Origin: a virus
Virus record (IMG/VR): IMGVR_UViG_3300042691_006316
Coordinates: 1 to 30,422 of that record
Reading direction: 5' to 3' (one strand)
DNA length: 30,422 nucleotides
Within the stretch, counting starts at the first letter, position 1; every line of letters begins with the position of its first letter. Both the position numbers and the translations under genes were made by a program. The notes under the pieces are model-generated. The model did not search any database, had not been told where the DNA came from, and saw nothing but the letters and a program-made list of their open reading frames with translations. This document shows, piece after piece, positions 7,557-23,642 of this stretch.

Positions 7557-8057
7557 TTATTTTCTTACTTCTTTGGTGACATCTGGCCACCATTCGGGGT
7601 CAGGATTCAGTCGGTTTTTGTACAGTTGTTTGATACGACTCTCGTACTCAGCTTTGGAACCTTCAACTCGGCCCGAAATCACGTCCAGCACATAGTTCAG
7701 TGTCACAGCATTGGCACTGAGTGTGGCACATCTGGCACTGACTTCGTTTTTCAACAGGTCCAGTAAAATACTTTCAGAACTTTCTGCAAGTACTTTTACA
7801 TATTTTTTAGGCACATGTAGATCAATGGTGCTGTACACAAAGTCATAGTGTGGCGCAGGGCAGCAGTGCAAGATGTATTCGTCTAGAACTTCTATGCGTT
7901 TGAATCCGTCTTTGTCGTACCACACAGCACGGTTGGCAGTGAGTTCGTCTGGTGCGCCCAGTTTCTTGGTGAGACTTTTGACAAATTTCACCGGCTCTTC
8001 GTTGCGCCACACAGCGGTGGTGTTTTTTGATTCAATCAGCAGGTCAGATATTTTCAT
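7557..8057 (-). CDS. Hypothetical protein, 166 aa, predicted leaderless late gene
   Basis: A 166-aa protein starting MKISDLLIESKNTTAVW. No family is recognised. The N-terminus M-K-I-S-D-L followed by LIE resembles capsid-targeting peptides of T4 internal proteins, which end in an (L/I)-x-E protease site. A TAAATA late box ends only five bases before the ATG, leaving no room for a leader or ribosome-binding site if that promoter is used. The C-terminus ends in a WW-containing tail (DPEWWPDVTKEVRK). Confidence 0.65.
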   Translation of the reverse strand: MKISDLLIESKNTTAVWRNEEPVKFVKSLTKKLGAPDELTANRAVWYDKDGFKRIEVLDEYILHCCPAPHYDFVYSTIDLHVPKKYVKVLAESSESILLDLLKNEVSARCATLSANAVTLNYVLDVISGRVEGSKAEYESRIKQLYKNRLNPDPEWWPDVTKEVRK

Positions 8058-8686: not shown

Positions 8687-9307
8687 TCAATAGTTTCCTG
8701 ATGCAAGCACGATCTTGCAGATGTGTTCTAATCTCTCGATGTGTTCGTATGCTCGCCAAGGGCTAGTGTCTATGGCAACTACTCCGTGGCCTTTGATGCC
8801 CACAATGTCATAGGCAATATTACCACGGTCATCTAATTCTAATCGATAATGACACTGATCGGCAAGTTCTTGGCTGATGGGTTTTACATCACCAACATTG
8901 GGTGCCACCCGGGTATAACGATTCAGTTCTGGAAACGCTGTGCTGATGGTGCTGAGATCAATTCCAGCATGCATGGCTGCAATGCAGTAGGTGGGATGAA
9001 CATGCACCACCACACGCACATCGTTGCTATGCTGACCCATGGCACGTTGCAGACCAAAGTGCAAGGGAATCTCTCCGCTGGGTTGCAAGTTGGCGCTGAT
9101 GTCAGTATAGTGCTCTTCCTGCCACCGCAGTCCGTCGATCCGGATCTTCTTGAACTGATCGGGTTGCAGGGTTTGCTTGCGTACACCTGACGGTGTGATG
9201 TAGAAGTGATCACGATCGTGGTGGCGAATTGAGACATTACCGTCACGACTGGTAATCCAGTTGCGCTTGTATGCGTCTGTCATGACTTCACAAATAGTTT
9301 CTAGCAT
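8687..9307 (-). CDS. Class II aldolase/adducin-family protein, 206 aa
   Basis: The product is like L-fuculose-phosphate aldolase, ribulose-phosphate epimerase-type or methylthioribulose-phosphate dehydratase enzymes. From the chosen ATG, the family's zinc and acid residues are visible: Glu79 in PSGEIPLH, His102 and His104 in VVHVHPT, and His174 in IKGHGVV. The N-terminal SRDGNVSIR is the phosphate-binding loop. A TTG start 33 nt upstream is possible, but the ATG after the TAA of the membrane-protein gene is preferred. An intact active site suggests a working metal-dependent lyase or dehydratase on a sugar phosphate; the substrate is unknown. Its place between nrdA and nrdB marks it as an accessory metabolic gene. 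Confidence 0.85.
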   Translation of the reverse strand: MLETICEVMTDAYKRNWITSRDGNVSIRHHDRDHFYITPSGVRKQTLQPDQFKKIRIDGLRWQEEHYTDISANLQPSGEIPLHFGLQRAMGQHSNDVRVVVHVHPTYCIAAMHAGIDLSTISTAFPELNRYTRVAPNVGDVKPISQELADQCHYRLELDDRGNIAYDIVGIKGHGVVAIDTSPWRAYEHIERLEHICKIVLASGNY

Positions 9308-9314
9308 TATTTTT

Positions 9315-9506
9315 TTACCAATGTCTAATAGTATTAGCAATAATAAACAAACAAGTTACCACATGTATCACTACCCAAAAAGTTTTTAAAAATAAAGCTA
9401 TTCTCGCTTCTTTTAAAGTTAAGATAGGTACATCTGGTTGGTCATCGTCTGTGTTACCCATTAAGTGACCAGTTGCTCTGGCCCATATTTTTTCAAACGA
9501 ATTCAT
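9315..9506 (-). CDS. Small membrane protein after nrdA, 63 aa
   Basis: A 63-aa protein starting MNSFEKIWARATGHLMGN, with one or two closely spaced membrane segments (about residues 36-60, rich in Val, Leu, Phe and Ile). A longer frame begins inside nrdA and is rejected; the chosen ATG lies one base after the nrdA TGA. I recall similar small proteins next to nrd genes in marine T4-like phages but cannot verify. Function unknown. Confidence 0.65.
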   Translation of the reverse strand: MNSFEKIWARATGHLMGNTDDDQPDVPILTLKEARIALFLKTFWVVIHVVTCLFIIANTIRHW

Positions 9507-14808: not shown

Positions 14809-15132
14809 CTATACTCTAAAACTTTCGCCACAACCGCATCGATCGCGTTCGTTAGGGTTGCGAAATTCAAAGCCCTCGTTAAGTCCTTGACGCACATAGT
14901 CGATCACCATGCCCGAAACATAAGGCAAATTTTTTGGATCCACAAACACTCGCACCCCATTGGTGTCGTAGTGCCGCACACAGTGTAGGTTGGGATTGTC
15001 TACATATTCTAACACATAGGCCAGGCCTGAACAGCCTGTGGTTTTAACTCCTACTTGGATGCCTTCACCCGAGCCTCGTTTTTCCAGCGCACGTTTAATG
15101 CGAGCTGCTGCTAGGTCTGTTACTGATATCAT
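14809..15132 (-). CDS. iscA: A-type iron-sulfur carrier (IscA/ErpA/SufA-like)
   Basis: A 107-aa protein with the three conserved cysteines of A-type carriers: Cys34 in TGCSGLAYVLEY and Cys99/Cys101 in the C-terminal CGCGESF. Length and order match the family. It would accept Fe-S clusters from IscU and pass them to apo-proteins. GGAG lies nine bases before the ATG. The start overlaps the 3' end of the GNAT gene by 38 bases, unusually long for this genome. Whether it is IscA, ErpA or SufA by descent needs a tree. Confidence 0.92.
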   Translation of the reverse strand: MISVTDLAAARIKRALEKRGSGEGIQVGVKTTGCSGLAYVLEYVDNPNLHCVRHYDTNGVRVFVDPKNLPYVSGMVIDYVRQGLNEGFEFRNPNERDRCGCGESFRV

Positions 15133-15706
15133 TTCGTTGTCTCCGTGCTAGGGGGTTGAAGTTGGCCAACCAACGTTGATGCAGTTCCATCATTTGATCC
15201 AGGAGATCTTGTTGTTCTCGTACAAAGTCTACAGTGTAGTCTGTTGGAGTTGGTGGGAGTAAAGCCACTTGTGCTGTGATGTCCGGTCCTGATCGTTCTA
15301 CTACTTCTAATCCGTGCTTGGTGGCCAAGTGTTGTATGCGCTGGTTGTCTCTAATGCAGTGCATGAACAGGCTGTCCACTCCGTGTGTTCTGGCCCAGTC
15401 AATAGTATACGCCATGAGACGATTGCCAATGCCTTGACCTTGAAGACTGCCACGCACACTCACTGCCAGTTCCCAGTCATGATTGCTTTTGGCCAGATGA
15501 GTAAATCCCACGGGGTCAGCACCATGTGCAGCCATAAACAAATAGTGATCGCCAGGATGGTATAACATGTGCAGGATCAACTGATCAATGTTGTGGTCGC
15601 TGGCAGCGTAGCCAAATCGTGTGTAACGGTCCTGTGCACTCAGTTGTTTTAAATGATGTGCGTAAAGGGATAATTCTGTGTTGCTACAGAGTTGTATATT
15701 AAGCAT
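15095..15706 (-). CDS. GNAT-family N-acetyltransferase, 203 aa
   Basis: The 203-aa protein has a typical GNAT opening (SAQDRYTRFGYAASDHNI, about 23-40) and an acetyl-CoA loop VSVRGSLQGQGIGNRLM (82-98) with Q-x-x-G-x-G. The last 45 residues (EQQDLLDQMMELHQRWL) extend past the GNAT core as a helical tail ending in SSSSH. Its substrate is unknown. It overlaps iscU by 8 bases and iscA by 38 bases, so the three are one translation unit; it might modify a protein in the same pathway or be an unrelated passenger. Confidence 0.85.
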   Translation of the reverse strand: MLNIQLCSNTELSLYAHHLKQLSAQDRYTRFGYAASDHNIDQLILHMLYHPGDHYLFMAAHGADPVGFTHLAKSNHDWELAVSVRGSLQGQGIGNRLMAYTIDWARTHGVDSLFMHCIRDNQRIQHLATKHGLEVVERSGPDITAQVALLPPTPTDYTVDFVREQQDLLDQMMELHQRWLANFNPLARRQRNDISNRPSSSSH

Positions 15707-16076
15707 GTTTGGCCCGGTAATCTGCCACTGCGGCCTTGATGGCGTCTTCAGCCAGGATGCTGCAGTGAATCTTCACAGGCGGCAAGGCTAGTTCTTCAGC
15801 TAACTCGCTGTTTTTGATATCGCTGGCCTGGTCCAGAGTCATACCTTTGACCATTTCGGTGATCAGGCTGCTGGATGCAATTGCACTACCGCATCCATAG
15901 GTTTTGAAGCGAGCATCTGTGATCACACCGTCTTCTACTTTGATTTGGAGCTTCATTACATCTCCGCAGGCCGGGGCTCCTACCATTCCGGTGCCAACGT
16001 TGGTGTCGCCTTTGTCAAAGCTGCCCACGTTGCGTGGATTTTCGTAGTGCTCTACAACCTGTGCTGAATATGCCAT
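15699..16076 (-). CDS. iscU: Fe-S cluster scaffold IscU
   Basis: A 125-aa scaffold protein. All active residues are visible: Cys37 and Asp39 (GAPACGDVM), Cys62 (YGCGSAIASSS), His104 and Cys105, and the HscA-recognition motif LPPVK (98-102) directly before IHCS. It is full length, so it should assemble 2Fe-2S clusters using host IscS and HscA/HscB. AAGGAG lies seven bases before the ATG and a strong promoter lies upstream (16095-16123), making it the first gene of an iscU, GNAT, iscA, exonuclease run. A phage iscU is an auxiliary gene likely taken from a bacterium with the Isc system. Confidence 0.96.
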   Translation of the reverse strand: MAYSAQVVEHYENPRNVGSFDKGDTNVGTGMVGAPACGDVMKLQIKVEDGVITDARFKTYGCGSAIASSSLITEMVKGMTLDQASDIKNSELAEELALPPVKIHCSILAEDAIKAAVADYRAKHA

Positions 16077-16143: not shown

Positions 16144-16506
16144 TTATTTTTTGAGGCCGCGTTTCATGGCCGATTTGGCAGCAGCAGCCACAATGTTTTG
16201 GGCCTTGTTTACAGGCATGCTTGGTGCTGCAGGTTGTTCACCGCCTTTGAATACAATAGGGTCCTGTGAGTCCGGGGCCAAGGGTTCCAGAATGTTGCTC
16301 AGCGGAGGTTGCCCCACAAGGTCAGCCAGTTGGTTTGGAGCAATGACTATGCCCAGGCCGCGTGCCAGTTCGATAAAGGCTCGTTGATCAATTTGCTTTT
16401 GTGCACCGCGATCTTCTGAGCGGCCAGCTAAAAAACTCACCAGGCCCATGAGCTTTTCGGGCTCAGGCGTAGCGCCTGTTGTGTTGGCCACTTCGTCAAT
16501 ACGCAT
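16144..16506 (-). CDS. Hypothetical late protein, 120 aa
   Basis: The 120-aa protein starts MRIDEVANTTGATPEPEKL and ends in a basic Ala/Lys helix (KSAMKRGLKK). A proline-rich linker lies around residues 66-98. Its ATG overlaps the TAA of the 320-aa gene (TAATG), so the two are coupled and probably work together in the virion or prohead. No family is recognised. Confidence 0.6.
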   Translation of the reverse strand: MRIDEVANTTGATPEPEKLMGLVSFLAGRSEDRGAQKQIDQRAFIELARGLGIVIAPNQLADLVGQPPLSNILEPLAPDSQDPIVFKGGEQPAAPSMPVNKAQNIVAAAAKSAMKRGLKK

Positions 16507-17468
16507 TATCTACGTGCTCGTCCCAGCGAAGCAGCAGGAGCACCTGTGTCGGCGTCGAGATCAGCGCCAGCATCTGCAGCTAGGTCATCTAGATCATCCA
16601 TTTCGCCAGCAACGCCGGCTGCAGCATCAGCACCAAGATCAGCGCCGGCGTCTAGATCAGCGCCAGCGTCCATGCCTGGAATTTCAGCAGCAGGTGCAGC
16701 TTGTCCAGTAACCACGCCTAGGGCAGCATCTAACTGTTGCTTGGTACCCGACAAGGTCTGCATCAAGGCAGTGAGTGCACCTGTGACATCGGTGTTGAAT
16801 TGTGTGGCCTGATCAATACCCACTTGATTCTTGATCGAATCAACCAGGGCTGGTAATTCTTTGAACTGCAGTTCGCTTACATCTTCCAACATGCCCTGCA
16901 TCTTATCAACCATGTCTTGTGCAGCCAACACTACCTGGGCTTGTTGCACTTCGCTTTCTTTGAGATAGCGATAGGCACGACGCAGGCGATTTTCAGCCAT
17001 GGTGGTGGCTTGTGTGTTGATCATGTTTTGTTCGTCAGGAGTCAAGGCCTGACCTTTCTTGATCTTGTCTTGGGCTGCTTTGAGTTTGGGATCTACAGGA
17101 GCAGCAGGCTTGGCAGCAGGGTTCATGCCAGTGGCTGGTGCAGGAGTAGCACCTGCAGGTTGGATAGTTCCAGGCTTGGCAGCAGGTTGCATGCCAGTTG
17201 CTGGACTAGGTGTGGCTGCCATTTCTTTGAGACGGGCGGCTAGAGCCTGTTCCATCATGACCAGTTTGAGATACTCAGGATCTTGTTCGCTGGTGTGACG
17301 AGCTGCAGTCTGACGGTGTTCACCCAGTATACCACGCACACGATTCAGCATGTGGTCGGCCTGGCGGCGGTTCAACTGGTCAAAGCTGAGTCTAGAACCA
17401 AAGTAACTTTCGAATACTTGGCTAATTTGTTGTGTGGCCTTGGGTGCGGCGAGTTCATGCAGTTTCAT
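16506..17468 (-). CDS. Probable head/prohead-associated protein with repeats, 320 aa
   Basis: The 320-aa protein starts MKLHELAAPKATQQISQVF with a helical N-terminal half (about 1-90), a Pro/Ala linker with two copies of an ATGMxPAAKP unit (about 95-123), a helical middle (125-250) and an acidic Asp/Ala/Gly tail (ADLDAGADLGADAA), ending in GRARR. Such acidic, low-complexity, helical proteins are typical of T4-type prohead core or scaffold proteins, but no direct match is recognised. It has a late box upstream and GAGGAT before the ATG. It is co-transcribed with the 120-aa gene. Confidence 0.6.
   Translation of the reverse strand: MKLHELAAPKATQQISQVFESYFGSRLSFDQLNRRQADHMLNRVRGILGEHRQTAARHTSEQDPEYLKLVMMEQALAARLKEMAATPSPATGMQPAAKPGTIQPAGATPAPATGMNPAAKPAAPVDPKLKAAQDKIKKGQALTPDEQNMINTQATTMAENRLRRAYRYLKESEVQQAQVVLAAQDMVDKMQGMLEDVSELQFKELPALVDSIKNQVGIDQATQFNTDVTGALTALMQTLSGTKQQLDAALGVVTGQAAPAAEIPGMDAGADLDAGADLGADAAAGVAGEMDDLDDLAADAGADLDADTGAPAASLGRARR
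17105..17204. repeat. Direct repeat inside the 320-aa gene
   Basis: Two 34-bp copies (17105-17138 and 17171-17204) match at 31 of 34 positions with a 66-bp period. They encode the repeated ATGM-(Q/N)-PAAKP segment, so the protein linker grew by a 22-codon duplication that could expand or contract. Confidence 0.7.
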
Positions 17469-19173: not shown

Positions 19174-21081
19174 TCATGATTTGGGATTGTTTTGTGCTCG
19201 ATTTTGAGCAGCAAAAGCGTTGGGATCAAAGCGGTTCACTGCTTTGGCATAGCCTGCAGGTGTGGCCATTACCCAGCCTTCTTGTCCTGGATGCTGTGCA
19301 TCTGCTTGACGCAACAGATCCATTTTGAGATCGTGCAACAATATAAATGCTGTGAATGCTGCTGCCAGGGCCTCTGTGTTGCTGGTGGGACTCTGTAGGT
19401 ACTCCACAATGTTGCGGAACTTTTGTGGTGTTACTTTGGTCTGCAGCCAGTCGCCAAACTCGGGCATTAGGGTAGCAGGATTTAGTGGTGAGCCTACCTT
19501 GGTGTTGATAAAGTCCACAGCCAGTTTGGCCAGGTCTGTAATCTTGTTGGCTCTCAGTTCAGCAGGATTGAACAGGGTGTTGATGGCAGCACCGTCTGAC
19601 CGTATCAGACTCTTGAGTTGTTTTACCAGTGCAGGTTCAGCTGTCAACGCTTTGGGAGTGGCTGGGCGTTCCAGCATCAGGCCCGGAACAGGATTAAAGC
19701 TCACACCACGCAAGGGCTGTCGTGGTTCGCCTACATCACTGTACATGCTGTGAATAGCAATGCCAATTTTGCTGGCACCTATGCGTTGACCCAAGGCACT
19801 GCGAACTGGAATTTTGTATTCGATAGTATTGGGGCGGAACACATAGTTGCCGGCTACTTCGGGCGGTGTGTCCATGTACAACAAGTCGCCCTTGACATAG
19901 CCACGGAAGTTTGCAGGCAGTGCTGCTTCTAGCACAGGAAACAAGGTGGCATACAACTGGATTAGTTCTGTGCGATCGCCTGATCTCTTGCTCTGTATAT
20001 CAGCCATCATTTGAGGACTAGTGGCCAGACCGTCGTAGCCCTTGGCTTCAAATCCCGACCCATCAGTCAGCACAAACTCACCTGTGGCAGGCTTGCGACC
20101 AAAGATCACAGCAGGTTTGCCGTCCCATTTGGCAGTCACTGTGCTGGGCTGTTCCATGGCCTGTTGAACTATTTCTAGTGCATCCACAATGCCTTGTGTG
20201 CCACGACGGAACACCAGATCTTCTAGATGTTCAATACCTTTGGCACGACCACCTACGCCGACTGCTTCGGCTTCAGAAATCATTTGTACAGAGTCTGGTG
20301 CTTCTACCAAAGGCATCATGCCTTGGTTTACAATGCGATCTCTCAAGCGTGCCAGAAAACCCACATCACTTTCTTTCACGCTGGTATCTGGTTCCTGTAA
20401 ACCTTCACGTGCCAAATATTCACGGAAGTCACGGAGTTTAGCATCACGTTCAGGATCACCAGCTAGATTCTGATAGATAGTTTCCACGTTCTTTAGGTCA
20501 TCTTGATCACGGCCTGGGCCCAGCAAAGTCTGTGCCACACGGTCAGGATCCATACCATCGCGTACTGGCTCATTGGTGGCACGACTGAACATACCGTTGG
20601 CTCCTACCTTGAGTCCCAGGTGTTTGGCCAAGCTGGACATTAGCACATTGCGTACCATGCCTTTGTAGGCTGAATCTGTACCGCCTGCATAGAAGAATGT
20701 GCCCCAGTCCACATTGGGGAAAAACATAAAGTCTGTTTGTACAAAGCCATTTTCAGCACGGCCACCGATAGGAGTTTTGAAATGTACTTCACCTGATTTG
20801 CGTACCCAGTCACGCGGGTCTTGTTTGTTCTGCTGAACAAATTGTGTGAGCCGTTGTGCAATAGCTTCTTTGTCAGCATCCGCTAAATCCACTGCCAAGT
20901 CTAGGTCGCCTGAAGTGGCAGCACGGCCAGTTGAACCCAGCCAACGATCTTGAGGGAACTGCATGCCCAGCACACCTTCCAGCCACTTGATTGTAGCAGG
21001 CACATCCGCTCGGTCAATACGCTGTGTGGCTGGCTTGCCGTCAGCAGTTTTAAATACGTTTCCGCCTTCTAGTAGTTTCAT
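19174..21081 (-). CDS. Fusion of Pol-beta-type nucleotidyltransferase and ligase-like (DUF6267-like) domain, 635 aa
   Basis: The N-terminal domain (about 30-160) has the minimal nucleotidyltransferase signature: Gly49-Ser50 in WLGSTGRA, Asp59-x-Asp61 in SGDLDLAVD and a third acid Asp117 in VQTDFMF. After a linker, the C-terminal domain (about 280-620) opens with GIEHLEDL and has motif I TAKWDGKPAV with candidate nucleophile Lys318, a motif-III-like YVKGDLLYM (Asp399), a motif-IV-like EGWVM (601-605) and Lys613 in YAKAVNR. This pattern is that of covalent nucleotidyltransferases (ligase/capping superfamily) and recalls DUF6267 of T4-like phages. The start MKLLEGGNVF overlaps the 216-aa gene (ATGA). 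Late context suggests a packaged or late-acting RNA or DNA end-modifying enzyme; activity is unproven. Confidence 0.75.
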   Translation of the reverse strand: MKLLEGGNVFKTADGKPATQRIDRADVPATIKWLEGVLGMQFPQDRWLGSTGRAATSGDLDLAVDLADADKEAIAQRLTQFVQQNKQDPRDWVRKSGEVHFKTPIGGRAENGFVQTDFMFFPNVDWGTFFYAGGTDSAYKGMVRNVLMSSLAKHLGLKVGANGMFSRATNEPVRDGMDPDRVAQTLLGPGRDQDDLKNVETIYQNLAGDPERDAKLRDFREYLAREGLQEPDTSVKESDVGFLARLRDRIVNQGMMPLVEAPDSVQMISEAEAVGVGGRAKGIEHLEDLVFRRGTQGIVDALEIVQQAMEQPSTVTAKWDGKPAVIFGRKPATGEFVLTDGSGFEAKGYDGLATSPQMMADIQSKRSGDRTELIQLYATLFPVLEAALPANFRGYVKGDLLYMDTPPEVAGNYVFRPNTIEYKIPVRSALGQRIGASKIGIAIHSMYSDVGEPRQPLRGVSFNPVPGLMLERPATPKALTAEPALVKQLKSLIRSDGAAINTLFNPAELRANKITDLAKLAVDFINTKVGSPLNPATLMPEFGDWLQTKVTPQKFRNIVEYLQSPTSNTEALAAAFTAFILLHDLKMDLLRQADAQHPGQEGWVMATPAGYAKAVNRFDPNAFAAQNRAQNNPKS

Positions 21082-21728
21082 TTTGTTTTCTTAATTCCCG
21101 AGGTAGCAGAAGTTACTCCTGCAGCCTGAAGCTGTGCAATAATAGCAGAATCCCGTGTGTTTTGAGGATTAAGGGGCCGGCCATCAAATTGATAAACTAC
21201 CGGAGCTGCTGCTGGGGCAACTGGTGTTGCTGCTGGTGCAGTCGAAGTTGTAGGCGGTGCTTGAGTTTTGTTTCTGTCAGCTATTTTATCTGTGGCAGTT
21301 TTTAAGAATCCAGGCTTTTCAATTGGTGCTGCTGCAGAAGGTACAGTTGCAGCTGGTTGAGCTGTTGTTTTACCTGTCATTTGATCCCTTGCTGTTTGTG
21401 CTGCCAATGCTTGTTTGGCCTTGCGAATTTGTTCAGGTGATTGCAGAACTGTTGCTGGGGCCTGCTTTACACCTGGGAGATTTAACACATTGCCAGCATT
21501 GAATCCTGTAGGTGTCACAGTTGTTGCAGCTGGTTTAGGTGCTGCCGCTGCCGCTGCTGGTGCTGGTGCTGGTGCAGCTGGTGCTGATGCAGGCAGTGGT
21601 GTAGTTTGTGCAAGTTTATAAGTGTTCCAATCCACACCAGTGGCTTTTTTAAATGCATCGTTACGAGCATCTGTAGCTAAACGTTTTAGAAAGTTTTCGT
21701 TAAGGGTAGTTATTTCATGAATCTGCAT
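21078..21728 (-). CDS. Ala/Pro-rich probable virion-internal protein, 216 aa
   Basis: A 216-aa protein starting MQIHEITTLNENFLKRLATD, with long Ala/Pro stretches (ASAPAAPAPAPAAAAAAPKP, about 50-69) and (APAATPVAPAAAP, about 169-181) separated by a Gln/Lys-rich helical centre. TCAGGAG precedes the chosen ATG; a start 54 nt upstream overlaps the preceding gene and is rejected. The N-terminus has a short helical peptide ending in LNE, an (L/I)-x-E site like that cut by T4 gp21 protease. Flexible low-complexity content fits an internal head protein. Function unknown. Confidence 0.6.
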   Translation of the reverse strand: MQIHEITTLNENFLKRLATDARNDAFKKATGVDWNTYKLAQTTPLPASAPAAPAPAPAAAAAAPKPAATTVTPTGFNAGNVLNLPGVKQAPATVLQSPEQIRKAKQALAAQTARDQMTGKTTAQPAATVPSAAAPIEKPGFLKTATDKIADRNKTQAPPTTSTAPAATPVAPAAAPVVYQFDGRPLNPQNTRDSAIIAQLQAAGVTSATSGIKKTK

Positions 21729-21963
21729 GGGTTCTCCTGACTGATCTAGAAAACTTGCCACTGTCTCGGGTACGGATTGCATTCAGCAGTTTTCTAGTGA
21801 GATTTTCAGCCTGTTCAGGCGAATACTCTGACTCAATCTGTTCCAGCAAGCGTATGGCAGTGTCAATGATGTTGCTGGCACGATTTTCAATCAACAAGCG
21901 GCGATCACGTTCTACATACAACGTGTCTAATTCTTCTAGTATACTTCGTGTCTTTTTTTGCAT
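21715..21963 (-). CDS. Helical hypothetical protein, 82 aa
   Basis: An 82-aa charged, helical protein starting MQKKTRSILEELDTLYVERD with coiled-coil-like spacing to about residue 60. It is the first gene of the late run into the 216- and 635-aa genes: a late box at 21982-21987 and AAAGG before the ATG. It overlaps the 216-aa gene by 14 bases. No family is recognised. Confidence 0.6.
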   Translation of the reverse strand: MQKKTRSILEELDTLYVERDRRLLIENRASNIIDTAIRLLEQIESEYSPEQAENLTRKLLNAIRTRDSGKFSRSVRRTHADS

Positions 21964-21981
21964 GTCAGCGGACCTTTGTAT

Positions 21982-21987
21982 TATTTA
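21982..21987 (-). promoter_or_regulatory. T4-type late promoter box, leftward
   Basis: Minus-strand CGCTAAATAAT, 18 bases before the ATG of the 82-aa gene. It is paired back to back with a plus-strand late box 18 bases away. Confidence 0.6.
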
Positions 21988-22005
21988 GCGTAGACCCTTT
22001 GGGAA

Positions 22006-22011
22006 TAAATA
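22006..22011 (+). promoter_or_regulatory. T4-type late promoter box, rightward
   Basis: Plus-strand GAATAAATATC, followed by a 20-nt leader with GAGGA before the ATG at 22032. It drives the tail-fibre gene against the direction of its neighbours. Confidence 0.65.
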
Positions 22012-22031
22012 TCTACTACGAGGACCCAACA

Positions 22032-23642
22032 ATGACCAGTGCAATCAATCCCAACAACATCGACGGCAGTTATCCAGTGCCAGGTGTGCCCAATAACACA
22101 CAGGGCTTTAGAACAAACTTTACCAATACCAAGACCAATTTCCAGTATGCTGCAGCCGAAATTACCGAACTGCAAAGCAAAGCTGTTCTTAAACAAAGTT
22201 TGGGCACTGCCAATGCACTAGTCAACAACAACATGAATGGTAGCACGATCTTCAATGTCAAACTGCAAGACGTTGAGTACAGCTACCTGGCGGTGACTGC
22301 TACCTCGGGCAACATCAACATTGATTACGCAGCAGCAATGTTTCAGCAGATCAACCCCACTGGTCCTGTGAGTCTGGGTTTTAGTAACTTTCCAGCTTCG
22401 GGCACAGTGGGCTCTGTACGGGTGGCCTTCAACATTACCAACGTGTCACAAACAGTGACCTTGCCGTCTGCGGTCAGTGTGGGTATCTCTGCTGTTGCTG
22501 GCATCAGTCCAGGTACACCAGGCCTGAGCAACACCATCACTTTCTCTGCCGCAGGTAACTATGCATTTGAATTTGCGTCAGCTGACGGTGGTACCACTAT
22601 CTGGATCTTTGACGACAGCCGTGCTCCTGACACAATTCGCAGTACTTTTTTCATTGACAATGCCACTGCTGCCACTTCCAATGTAACAGGTGCGCTGAGA
22701 GTGACCGGCGGCGTTGGAGTAGGCGGCAACATATATACTGCAGGCAATGTGTATAGTAGCCGTATCTTTGGCGATGGTGGATTCCTCAGCAACGTGACTG
22801 TGGCGTCCAACGTGGCAGTGACTCAAATTGCCAACGGTGCTTCTGCTATGGCAGTCAACGGTTCAGGTGGCAACATTTCTATCACAGTGGGCGGTATGGC
22901 CAACGTGGCAGTGTTCACTACTACTGGCCTAGATCTCAACGGCAACATTGTGGGCAACGCCAACGTCAGCGGTGAAGTTTACAGTGCCGGCAACATCAAC
23001 GTGAATTCAGGCAGCTACTTCTTGGGCGATGGCAGCTTGTTGAGTAATATATCTCCCAACCATGTGTTCTTTGCCAACAGCTACATGGGGTTTGGTATAG
23101 CCAACGGCAACGCCAACATTTCTGTAGGTTCTTCAGCCAACGTGGCAGTGTTTACTCCTAGTGCAGCAATTTTTGACAGCAACGTGGTGGTACTGGGCGC
23201 AAGTGGTGTTGTTTCCAACGTGGTCACCACCGGCAACCTTGCTGTGACCGGCATAGTGACCAGCGATCTTGTGAGCATTGACCGCATTGTGACCAGCAGC
23301 AACGGGGGCATTGGTTATGTTACAGGTGCTGGTGGTACTCAAACTCAAACCACCAACAAGACCAACCCTGTCACACTTAATACTATTGCGGGTCAAATCA
23401 CTCTAAACAATCAGAACTTGGGTGCAGGTTCTCATGCAACGTTTGTGCTCAACAACACTGCCATTGCCAACACTGACGTCATGATTATCAACCATGTAAG
23501 CGGTGGTACTATCGGTGCTTATACATTTGATGTGAGTTGTAATACTGCAAATGCCAACGTCACCATCACCAACCGTACAGGTGGTGCATTGGCTGAAGCA
23601 CCTGTGATTAGATTTGCTGTGATCAAGAGTGCTATCAGTTAA
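22032..23642 (+). CDS. Tail-fibre/virion structural protein, 536 aa
   Basis: A 536-aa Asn/Gly/Val-rich protein. The start MTSAINPNNIDGSYPVPG is chosen over an upstream ATG because the late box and GAGGA lie between them. Residues 1-60 (QGFRTNFTNTKTNFQYAAAE) form the N-terminal module common in marine phage fibres. Residues 215-420 hold repeated beta units (GDGGFLSNV and GDGSLLSNI; three ANV- or SNVAV-type units). The final 110 aa (TQTQTTNKTNPVTLN to IRFAVIKSAIS) form a C-terminal domain I associate with pelagic phage fibres. It would recognise the host surface. It is one of two plus-strand genes and ends tail-to-tail with the helicase gene. Confidence 0.82.
   Translation: MTSAINPNNIDGSYPVPGVPNNTQGFRTNFTNTKTNFQYAAAEITELQSKAVLKQSLGTANALVNNNMNGSTIFNVKLQDVEYSYLAVTATSGNINIDYAAAMFQQINPTGPVSLGFSNFPASGTVGSVRVAFNITNVSQTVTLPSAVSVGISAVAGISPGTPGLSNTITFSAAGNYAFEFASADGGTTIWIFDDSRAPDTIRSTFFIDNATAATSNVTGALRVTGGVGVGGNIYTAGNVYSSRIFGDGGFLSNVTVASNVAVTQIANGASAMAVNGSGGNISITVGGMANVAVFTTTGLDLNGNIVGNANVSGEVYSAGNINVNSGSYFLGDGSLLSNISPNHVFFANSYMGFGIANGNANISVGSSANVAVFTPSAAIFDSNVVVLGASGVVSNVVTTGNLAVTGIVTSDLVSIDRIVTSSNGGIGYVTGAGGTQTQTTNKTNPVTLNTIAGQITLNNQNLGAGSHATFVLNNTAIANTDVMIINHVSGGTIGAYTFDVSCNTANANVTITNRTGGALAEAPVIRFAVIKSAIS
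22807..23150 (+). repeat. Internal repeats in the tail-fibre gene
   Basis: Exact 14-bp CCAACGTGGCAGTG occurs three times (22807-22820, 22900-22913, 23137-23150), each encoding the beta unit around NVAV. Repeats of this kind allow fibre length or specificity to change by recombination. Confidence 0.65.

What the first reader, a model, noticed from the sequence alone, without database searches (positions are those of the whole stretch)
19174..21081. Fusion of a Pol-beta-type nucleotidyltransferase with a ligase/capping-type nucleotidyltransferase
Both halves keep catalytic signatures: GS-x8-DxD plus Asp117 at the N-terminus, and KWDG with downstream acid, EGW and Lys elements at the C-terminus. 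A protein that could add nucleotides and also form a covalent enzyme-nucleotide adduct would suit end repair, capping or tRNA repair against host defence. It is expressed late and starts with MKLLE, so it may be packaged and injected.
Basis: partly seen in the sequence, partly recalled or inferred. Interest (0 to 1): 0.78.

Follow-up and report, generated by a model that had tools for sequence, protein, structure and literature searches.

The report
Phage end-repair enzyme fusion, probably packaged
A phage protein known only from environmental DNA joins a nucleotide-adding enzyme to a ligase-like enzyme that public databases still list as 'unknown function'; conserved protease-type sites suggest it is packed in the virus head, cut into two enzymes and injected to mend broken nucleic acid ends.

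Summary
In detail: the minus-strand ORF at 19174-21081 (635 aa) has GS-x8-DxD, D117, KWDG (K318), EGW and K613, essentially invariant in 79 relatives. The N-half model matches Pol-beta-fold (Pol X) enzymes. The C-half is Pfam DUF6267 ('unknown function'); model, profile and motif evidence places it, less strongly, in the ligase/capping superfamily, nearest to phage RNA ligases.

The pairing recurs: fused NTase-DUF6267 in over 200 IMG/VR loci, overlapping neighbour genes in Phosso, Atu_ph07 and other jumbo phages, and a reverse-order fusion. In cyanophages DUF6267 instead partners a HIGH/cytidylyltransferase-type NTase, and in one freshwater group also an Acb1 domain.

New here: the leader ends in [LI]-x-E just before the NTase core in 77/79 relatives, and the disordered linker holds [LI]-x-E in 77/79: the T4 gp21 prohead-protease motif. 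Two neighbouring families share the leader, and the PA5oct NTase is annotated as a virion protein by mass spectrometry. Best reading: a two-enzyme end-repair polyprotein (RNA more likely than DNA), packaged, cut and injected. Catalysis, substrate, cleavage and packaging are untested. It works like the known RNA ligase + RlaP pair but is not a member by Pfam/profile tests.

The parts
19174..21081 (-). Pol-beta NTase + DUF6267 ligase-like fusion protein, 635 aa
   Evidence: ORF; conserved full length in IMG/VR
21067..21081 (-). Leader MKLLE (res 1-5), putative capsid-targeting peptide ending in gp21-type motif L-L-E|G
   Evidence: 77/79 relatives end the leader in [LI]xE directly before GG
20341..21066 (-). 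NTase domain (res 6-247), Pol-beta fold
   Evidence: AlphaFold; Foldseek to Pol lambda/beta/mu/TdT
20899..20907 (-). DxD catalytic motif D59-L60-D61
   Evidence: 78/79
20731..20733 (-). third catalytic acid D117
   Evidence: 79/79
20236..20340 (-). Inter-domain linker (res 248-282), low-confidence/disordered in the model
   Evidence: pLDDT below 50 at 252-276; [LI]xE in 77/79
20299..20310 (-). candidate prohead-protease site L258-V-E260|A261
   Evidence: motif count; consensus L/I-X-E from PMC9026906
20269..20280 (-). second candidate prohead-protease site I268-S-E270|A271
   Evidence: sequence
19225..20235 (-). DUF6267 = ligase/capping-superfamily-like domain (res 283-619)
   Evidence: Pfam PF19782 E 7.5e-30; model pLDDT 90.7; Foldseek; hhalign
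20119..20130 (-). motif I K318-W-D-G, predicted nucleotidyl-lysine
   Evidence: 79/79; invariant in 66 DUF6267 proteins
19885..19890 (-). motif III-like G398-D399
   Evidence: 79/79
19294..19635 (-). all-helical insertion (res 483-596) between motif IIIa-like and motif IV, a DUF6267-specific feature
   Evidence: secondary structure
19273..19281 (-). motif IV E601-G-W603
   Evidence: E601 and G602 79/79
19243..19245 (-). motif V K613
   Evidence: 79/79
21078..21782 (-). upstream gene overlapping P0001 by 4 nt (ATGA); Pro/Ala-rich, fast-evolving
   Evidence: found in only 3 loci
16506..17468 (-). syntenic gene with the same M-[KR]-[LI]-x-E leader; hits a virion structural family
   Evidence: phrog_14154 E 1.2e-13; 55 of 63 distinct N-termini have [LI]xE
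16144..16506 (-). syntenic gene with the same leader type (MRIDE / MKIFE)
   Evidence: 59 of 59 distinct N-termini

Best explanation
It is a two-enzyme nucleic-acid end-repair polyprotein. (1) The N-domain, a Pol-beta NTase (fold shown by model and conserved acids), adds nucleotide(s) to a damaged 3' end (inferred). (2) The DUF6267 domain, a ligase/capping-superfamily enzyme (indicated by structure, profile and motif), forms a K318-NMP adduct and seals the end (inferred); RNA, such as tRNA cut by host defence nucleases, is the likeliest substrate (inferred). (3) The leader MKLLE and the linker carry gp21-type sites (motif shown, cleavage inferred): the protein enters the prohead, is cut into free NTase and ligase, and is injected with the genome, so that repair starts before phage genes are expressed.
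For: Invariant catalytic residues. N-fold: Pol X, prob 1.00. C-fold: the top 8 PDB hits are ligase or capping enzymes; viral-library hits include a PA5oct protein at E 4e-6 and RNA ligases of Atu_ph07, Panulirus argus virus 1 and Tunisvirus. hhalign of DUF6267 to the jumbo-phage ligase family gives E 1.4e-6 plus a colinear 2.9e-4 hit aligning HLED, KxDG, PNTIxY and EGxV..KxVxR; controls are 0.09 or worse. The pair recurs fused N-C, fused C-N (L332/L333) and as overlapping neighbours. Of 80 loci fetched with an NTase query alone, 57 have a ligase/DUF6267 fused or within 5 kb (my count). One group of DUF6267 relatives is fused to Acb1, a 2H phosphodiesterase. Protease motif: leader 77/79, linker 77/79; leader absent or rare in neighbouring Fe-S, exonuclease-like and primase genes. 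NTases without a leader start at M-GG, matching the predicted mature end. A gp21-family protease is encoded in 6 of 12 relatives' contigs. PA5oct NTase EST35_0231 is annotated as a structural protein by ESI-MS/MS.
Against: No biochemistry exists. Best PDB Foldseek E for the C-domain is only 0.012, and no Pfam RNA-ligase model reaches its cut-off; 1 of 66 DUF6267 members reaches PF09511 at E 0.016, no better than noise families in that scan. Pol X and DNA-ligase hits would equally fit DNA gap repair. Cyanophages replace the NTase by a HIGH-type enzyme, which does not normally extend nucleic-acid ends. The PA5oct ligase EST35_0228 is not annotated as structural although neighbours are. Cyanophage DUF6267 genes mostly lack the leader. 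About 23 of 80 NTase loci show no ligase nearby. [LI]xE is a short motif and also occurs elsewhere in the protein (e.g. around 529-588).
Confidence: 0.45

Rival explanations
1. DNA gap-filling plus sealing: the Pol X-like domain fills gaps and the ligase seals nicks or ends of the incoming phage DNA, as in Pol X + ligase repair pairs.
For: Closest folds of the N-half are gap-filling DNA polymerases lambda/beta/mu; best PDB matches of the C-half are ATP DNA ligases and AsfvLIG; the locus lies next to primase-helicase genes.
Against: The phage already encodes an ATP-dependent DNA ligase at 186-1571. Profile and viral-fold evidence leans to RNA ligases. The cyanophage HIGH-type partner and the Acb1 fusion do not fit gap filling.
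Confidence: 0.2
2. Packaged effector that nucleotidylates host proteins or small molecules (NMPylation or cofactor-like synthesis), the ligase half serving as a second nucleotidyltransferase.
For: Pol-beta NTases in injected polyvalent phage proteins have been proposed as protein modifiers (PMC5512222); DUF6267's cyanophage partner belongs to the cytidylyltransferase/NMNAT class.
Against: Does not explain the recurring link to RNA-ligase-like proteins in jumbo phages; conserved EGxV/KxV motifs resemble polynucleotide ligases.
Confidence: 0.2
3. Counter-signalling: the module consumes or modifies defence nucleotides (CBASS type) rather than repairing ends.
For: DUF6267 + CTP_transf + Acb1 single ORF in L380 and equivalent ORFs in five other loci.
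Against: No Acb1 hit in P0001; a ligase has no obvious role in this.
Confidence: 0.08
4. Same repair enzyme but not packaged or cut: the [LI]xE motifs reflect structural conservation, not protease sites (a rival to step 3 only).
For: The motif is short; E5 could be part of the fold; no proteomics exists for this phage group.
Against: Leaders differ in sequence and length (about 40 kinds) yet keep [LI]xE at the junction; leaderless homologues start at M-GG; the same leader occurs on a virion structural family at the locus.
Confidence: 0.35

Closest known systems
DUF6267 (Pfam PF19782; PHROG 455)
   Same: The C-half is a member (E 7.5e-30).
   Different: Cyanophage members examined have no Pol-beta NTase; in most loci with enough flanking sequence they are fused or adjacent to a HIGH/cytidylyltransferase-type NTase.
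[quoted passage not shown]
   Same: A Pol-beta NTase working beside an ATP-dependent RNA ligase; the NTase is proposed to restore lost nucleotides before sealing.
   Different: P0001's NTase has no RlaP Pfam hit and hhalign to RlaP is no better than controls. T4 and Atu_ph07 carry RlaP, and T4, Atu_ph07 and Phosso carry Rnl1, elsewhere in the genome. Fusion with protease-type motifs has no counterpart in what I read.
T4 RNA ligase 1 (Rnl1) with Pnkp
   Same: KxDG, then an acidic motif III followed by P-x-N-x-I-V-x-x-Y, then EGxV and KxK-like order; hhalign E 0.0026.
   Different: DUF6267 has a helical insertion of about 110 residues before motif IV and no C-terminal domain after motif V; Pfam PF09511 not reached.
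T4 internal head proteins (IPI-III, Alt) with capsid-targeting sequence cut by gp21
   Same: Short N-terminal leader ending in L/I-x-E; some lone NTase relatives carry MTFKQFLLE or MKTFKQFFNLLKE, close to T4's MKTYQEFIAE.
   Different: P0001's leader is only 5 residues; packaging not shown; an internal linker site would split two enzymes.
Polyvalent proteins (PMC5512222)
   Same: Multidomain phage proteins predicted to be packaged and injected.
   Different: No RNA ligase + NTase pair of this type in the passages I read; processing here would be by the prohead protease rather than by a built-in peptidase.

Membership tests
Pol-beta NTase superfamily | hG[GS]-x(n)-[DE]h[DE] motif | tested here: met
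   G49S50-x8-D59LD61, 78/79 (S50 is T in two)
Pol-beta NTase superfamily | third catalytic acid on a later strand | tested here: met
   D117 79/79 on strand 113-121
Pol-beta NTase superfamily | fold | tested here: met
   Pol X hits, prob 1.00, best E 4.7e-4
Pol-beta NTase superfamily | nucleotidyl transfer activity | not testable with these tools
   needs assay
Covalent nucleotidyltransferase (ligase/capping) superfamily | motif I KxDG and motifs III, IV, V in order | tested here: met
   K318WDG, GD399, EG601, K613 invariant in 79 relatives; KWDG and GD invariant, EG and K nearly so, in 66 diverse DUF6267 proteins
Covalent nucleotidyltransferase (ligase/capping) superfamily | fold | tested here: inconclusive
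   top 8 PDB hits all ligase/capping but best E 0.012; supported by viral library and profile match
Covalent nucleotidyltransferase (ligase/capping) superfamily | Lys-NMP adduct | not testable with these tools
   needs assay
T4 Rnl1 family (PF09511) | Pfam score over cut-off | tested here: not met
   no hit for P0001; 1 of 66 DUF6267 members at E 0.016
RlaP (PF10127) | Pfam match or profile similarity | tested here: not met
   no hit at E<=10; hhalign E 0.16, same as controls, though from only two RlaP sequences
DUF6267 (PF19782) | Pfam score over cut-off | tested here: met
   105 bits vs 27
Prohead-protease-processed internal head protein | leader ending in L/I-x-E | tested here: met
   77/79
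Prohead-protease-processed internal head protein | gp21-family protease encoded | tested here: inconclusive
   PF03420 in 6 of 12 relatives' contigs; the window itself is a fragment
Prohead-protease-processed internal head protein | present and cleaved in virions | not testable with these tools
   only the PA5oct NTase homologue is annotated by MS

The most novel reading that the evidence does not exclude
A phage repair polyprotein: an NTase and an RNA-ligase-like enzyme made as one chain, imported into the prohead, split at the linker by the prohead protease and injected, so that host defence damage to tRNA is reversed from the first moment of infection. DUF6267, a family present in hundreds of T4-like phages, would be a new RNA ligase family that swaps between two unrelated kinds of NTase partner.
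Probability: 0.3. Interest if true: 0.85.

Novelty: new variant of a known kind. Interest (0 to 1): 0.62.

Why it matters
It gives a testable function to DUF6267, found in about 400 sequenced phages (mostly cyanophages) and in very many metagenomic contigs. If right, phages deliver ready-made end-repair enzymes with their DNA, a counter-defence acting before any phage gene is expressed, and use the head-maturation protease to release two enzymes from one chain.

Tried and rejected
Sequence searches of P0001 and of domain profiles against the PDB gave nothing meaningful. NCBIfam and PADLOC gave no hit; plasmids no hit. One bacterial MAG contig (Rickettsiales, L419) holds a DUF6267 gene, with no sign that the fusion is bacterial. 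RlaP and Rnl1 membership tested and not met. T4 late promoter not found. I considered a strict rule that the two NTase types exclude each other and rejected it: L379-L383 and L385 carry both at one locus, and relatives encode other HIGH-type NTases elsewhere. A regex hunt for ligases beside lone NTases found none. No DUF6267 paper in the open library; the original RNA-repair survey that named RlaP (Burroughs & Aravind 2016, from memory) was not held, so what it says about related pairs could not be checked.

Full report
Observation. The ORF is on the minus strand of 19174-21081. In 79 relatives (window protein included; the others 47-90% identical to it) the ligase-type residues K318-W-D-G, D399, H444, E601-G and K613 are in 79/79, D117 in 79/79, D59 and D61 in 78/79; the exception is an ORF shortened at its 5' end.

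Domains. Residues 283-619 are Pfam DUF6267 (E 7.5e-30), of unknown function also in PHROGs. The N-half has no Pfam or PHROG family. AlphaFold on the 79-row alignment gives pLDDT 87.7 with a low-confidence linker at 252-276. Foldseek of the full model lists only Pol X enzymes in its top 50 (Pol lambda, beta, mu, TdT; prob 1.00, best E 4.7e-4). The C-domain alone (66 rows, pLDDT 90.7, pTM 0.86) gives weaker matches, but the top eight are all DNA ligases, a tRNA ligase domain or capping enzymes (best E 0.012). In the viral library, after other DUF6267 proteins, come a PA5oct protein of 446 aa (the length of EST35_0228; E 4.2e-6) and RNA ligases of Atu_ph07, Panulirus argus virus 1 and Tunisvirus. 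Secondary structure puts an all-helical insertion (483-596) between motif IIIa and motif IV, which probably explains the weak E-values.

Link to other phages. Sinorhizobium phage Phosso has a KLDG ligase-like gene (446) overlapping an NTase gene (447) homologous to the N-half. Agrobacterium phage Atu_ph07 has the same overlapping pair. Pseudomonas phage PA5oct has the ligase (EST35_0228) and, three genes on, the NTase (EST35_0231), the latter annotated 'structural protein, ESI-MS/MS'. A fetch with the jumbo-phage NTases alone returned 80 loci; in 57 of them (my tally) a DUF6267 or ligase-like gene is fused or lies within 5 kb, including a 901-aa ligase-then-NTase fusion in two assemblies (L332, L333). 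hhalign of DUF6267 against this jumbo-phage ligase family gives E 1.4e-6 and a second colinear hit at 2.9e-4, aligning HLED, K-x-D-G, PNTI-x-Y and EGxV...K-x-V-x-R...F..N; unrelated controls give 0.09 or worse. DUF6267 to T4 Rnl1 is 0.0026, over the motif IV-V region only.

Partner swap. In cyanophages and marine relatives DUF6267 has no Pol-beta partner; it is fused to (S-PM2) or adjacent to (P-HM1) a cytidylyltransferase/HIGH-type NTase. Of 89 marine-type loci, 68 show that partner within the fetched DNA; of the 21 without it, 13 end less than 500 bases downstream of DUF6267. More than 200 window-type loci are NTase-DUF6267 fusions. One freshwater group (L380 and like loci) fuses DUF6267, the HIGH-type NTase and an Acb1 2H-phosphodiesterase domain (PF23474 E 3.6e-15) and has a separate Pol-beta NTase gene beside it. 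A 2H enzyme could heal cyclic-phosphate RNA ends or destroy signalling nucleotides; this does not decide between the two.

Packaging signs. T4 gp21 cuts after L/I-x-E (PMC9026906). In 77 of 79 relatives the leader ends in exactly this motif before the NTase core, although leaders vary in length and sequence. Lone NTase relatives show leaders such as MTFKQFLLE|GG and MKTFKQFFNLLKE|GG, close to T4's MKTYQEFIAE, while jumbo-phage NTases without a leader start at M-GG, the predicted mature end. The disordered linker carries [LI]xE in 77/79, most often followed by A. Among window gene families with many homologues only P0001 (122/125 distinct N-termini), 16144-16506 (59/59) and 16506-17468 (55/63; hits a virion structural family) show the leader generally; metabolic genes at the locus mostly do not (the helicase's 18/49 lies further in, at residues 12-15, without a basic leader). 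A gp21-family protease is present in 6 of 12 relatives' contigs. Cleavage and packaging themselves are not shown.

Verdict. Phosso and Atu_ph07 carry a true Rnl1 elsewhere, so this pair is probably not a simple duplicate of it. The substrate is open: RNA is preferred over DNA because the profile and viral-fold evidence leans to RNA ligases and the phage has its own DNA ligase at 186-1571.

Noticed in passing
window 14809-15132 (-) and 15699-16076 (-): The phage carries an A-type Fe-S carrier (PF01521, E 6e-17) and an IscU/NifU-type scaffold (PF01592, E 2e-50); both lie in the syntenic block shared by many relatives.
   Followed up: partly
L380:5804-8143 (-), also L379, L381-L383, L385: Single ORF with DUF6267, cytidylyltransferase-like and Acb1 anti-CBASS domains (Pfam run on L380 only).
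   Followed up: partly
window 8687-9340 (-): Class II aldolase/adducin domain protein (PF00596 E 6.5e-30), a likely metabolic gene.
   Followed up: no
window 7557-8057 (-): Protein starts MKISDLLIE|SK, another candidate gp21-type leader.
   Followed up: no
L235:4857-5825 (Prevotella phage Lak-A2): Lak megaphages encode a distant NTase relative (read with TAG as Gln); no ligase recognised nearby.
   Followed up: partly
L353, L373, L388 and similar: Lone NTase relatives with leaders of the LxE type, no ligase nearby; L353 and L373 sit among tail-fibre-like genes.
   Followed up: partly
window 21948-23642 (+): Long plus-strand, fibre-like repeat-rich gene between the helicase gene and the P0001 operon; homologues in about 100 loci.
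   Followed up: no
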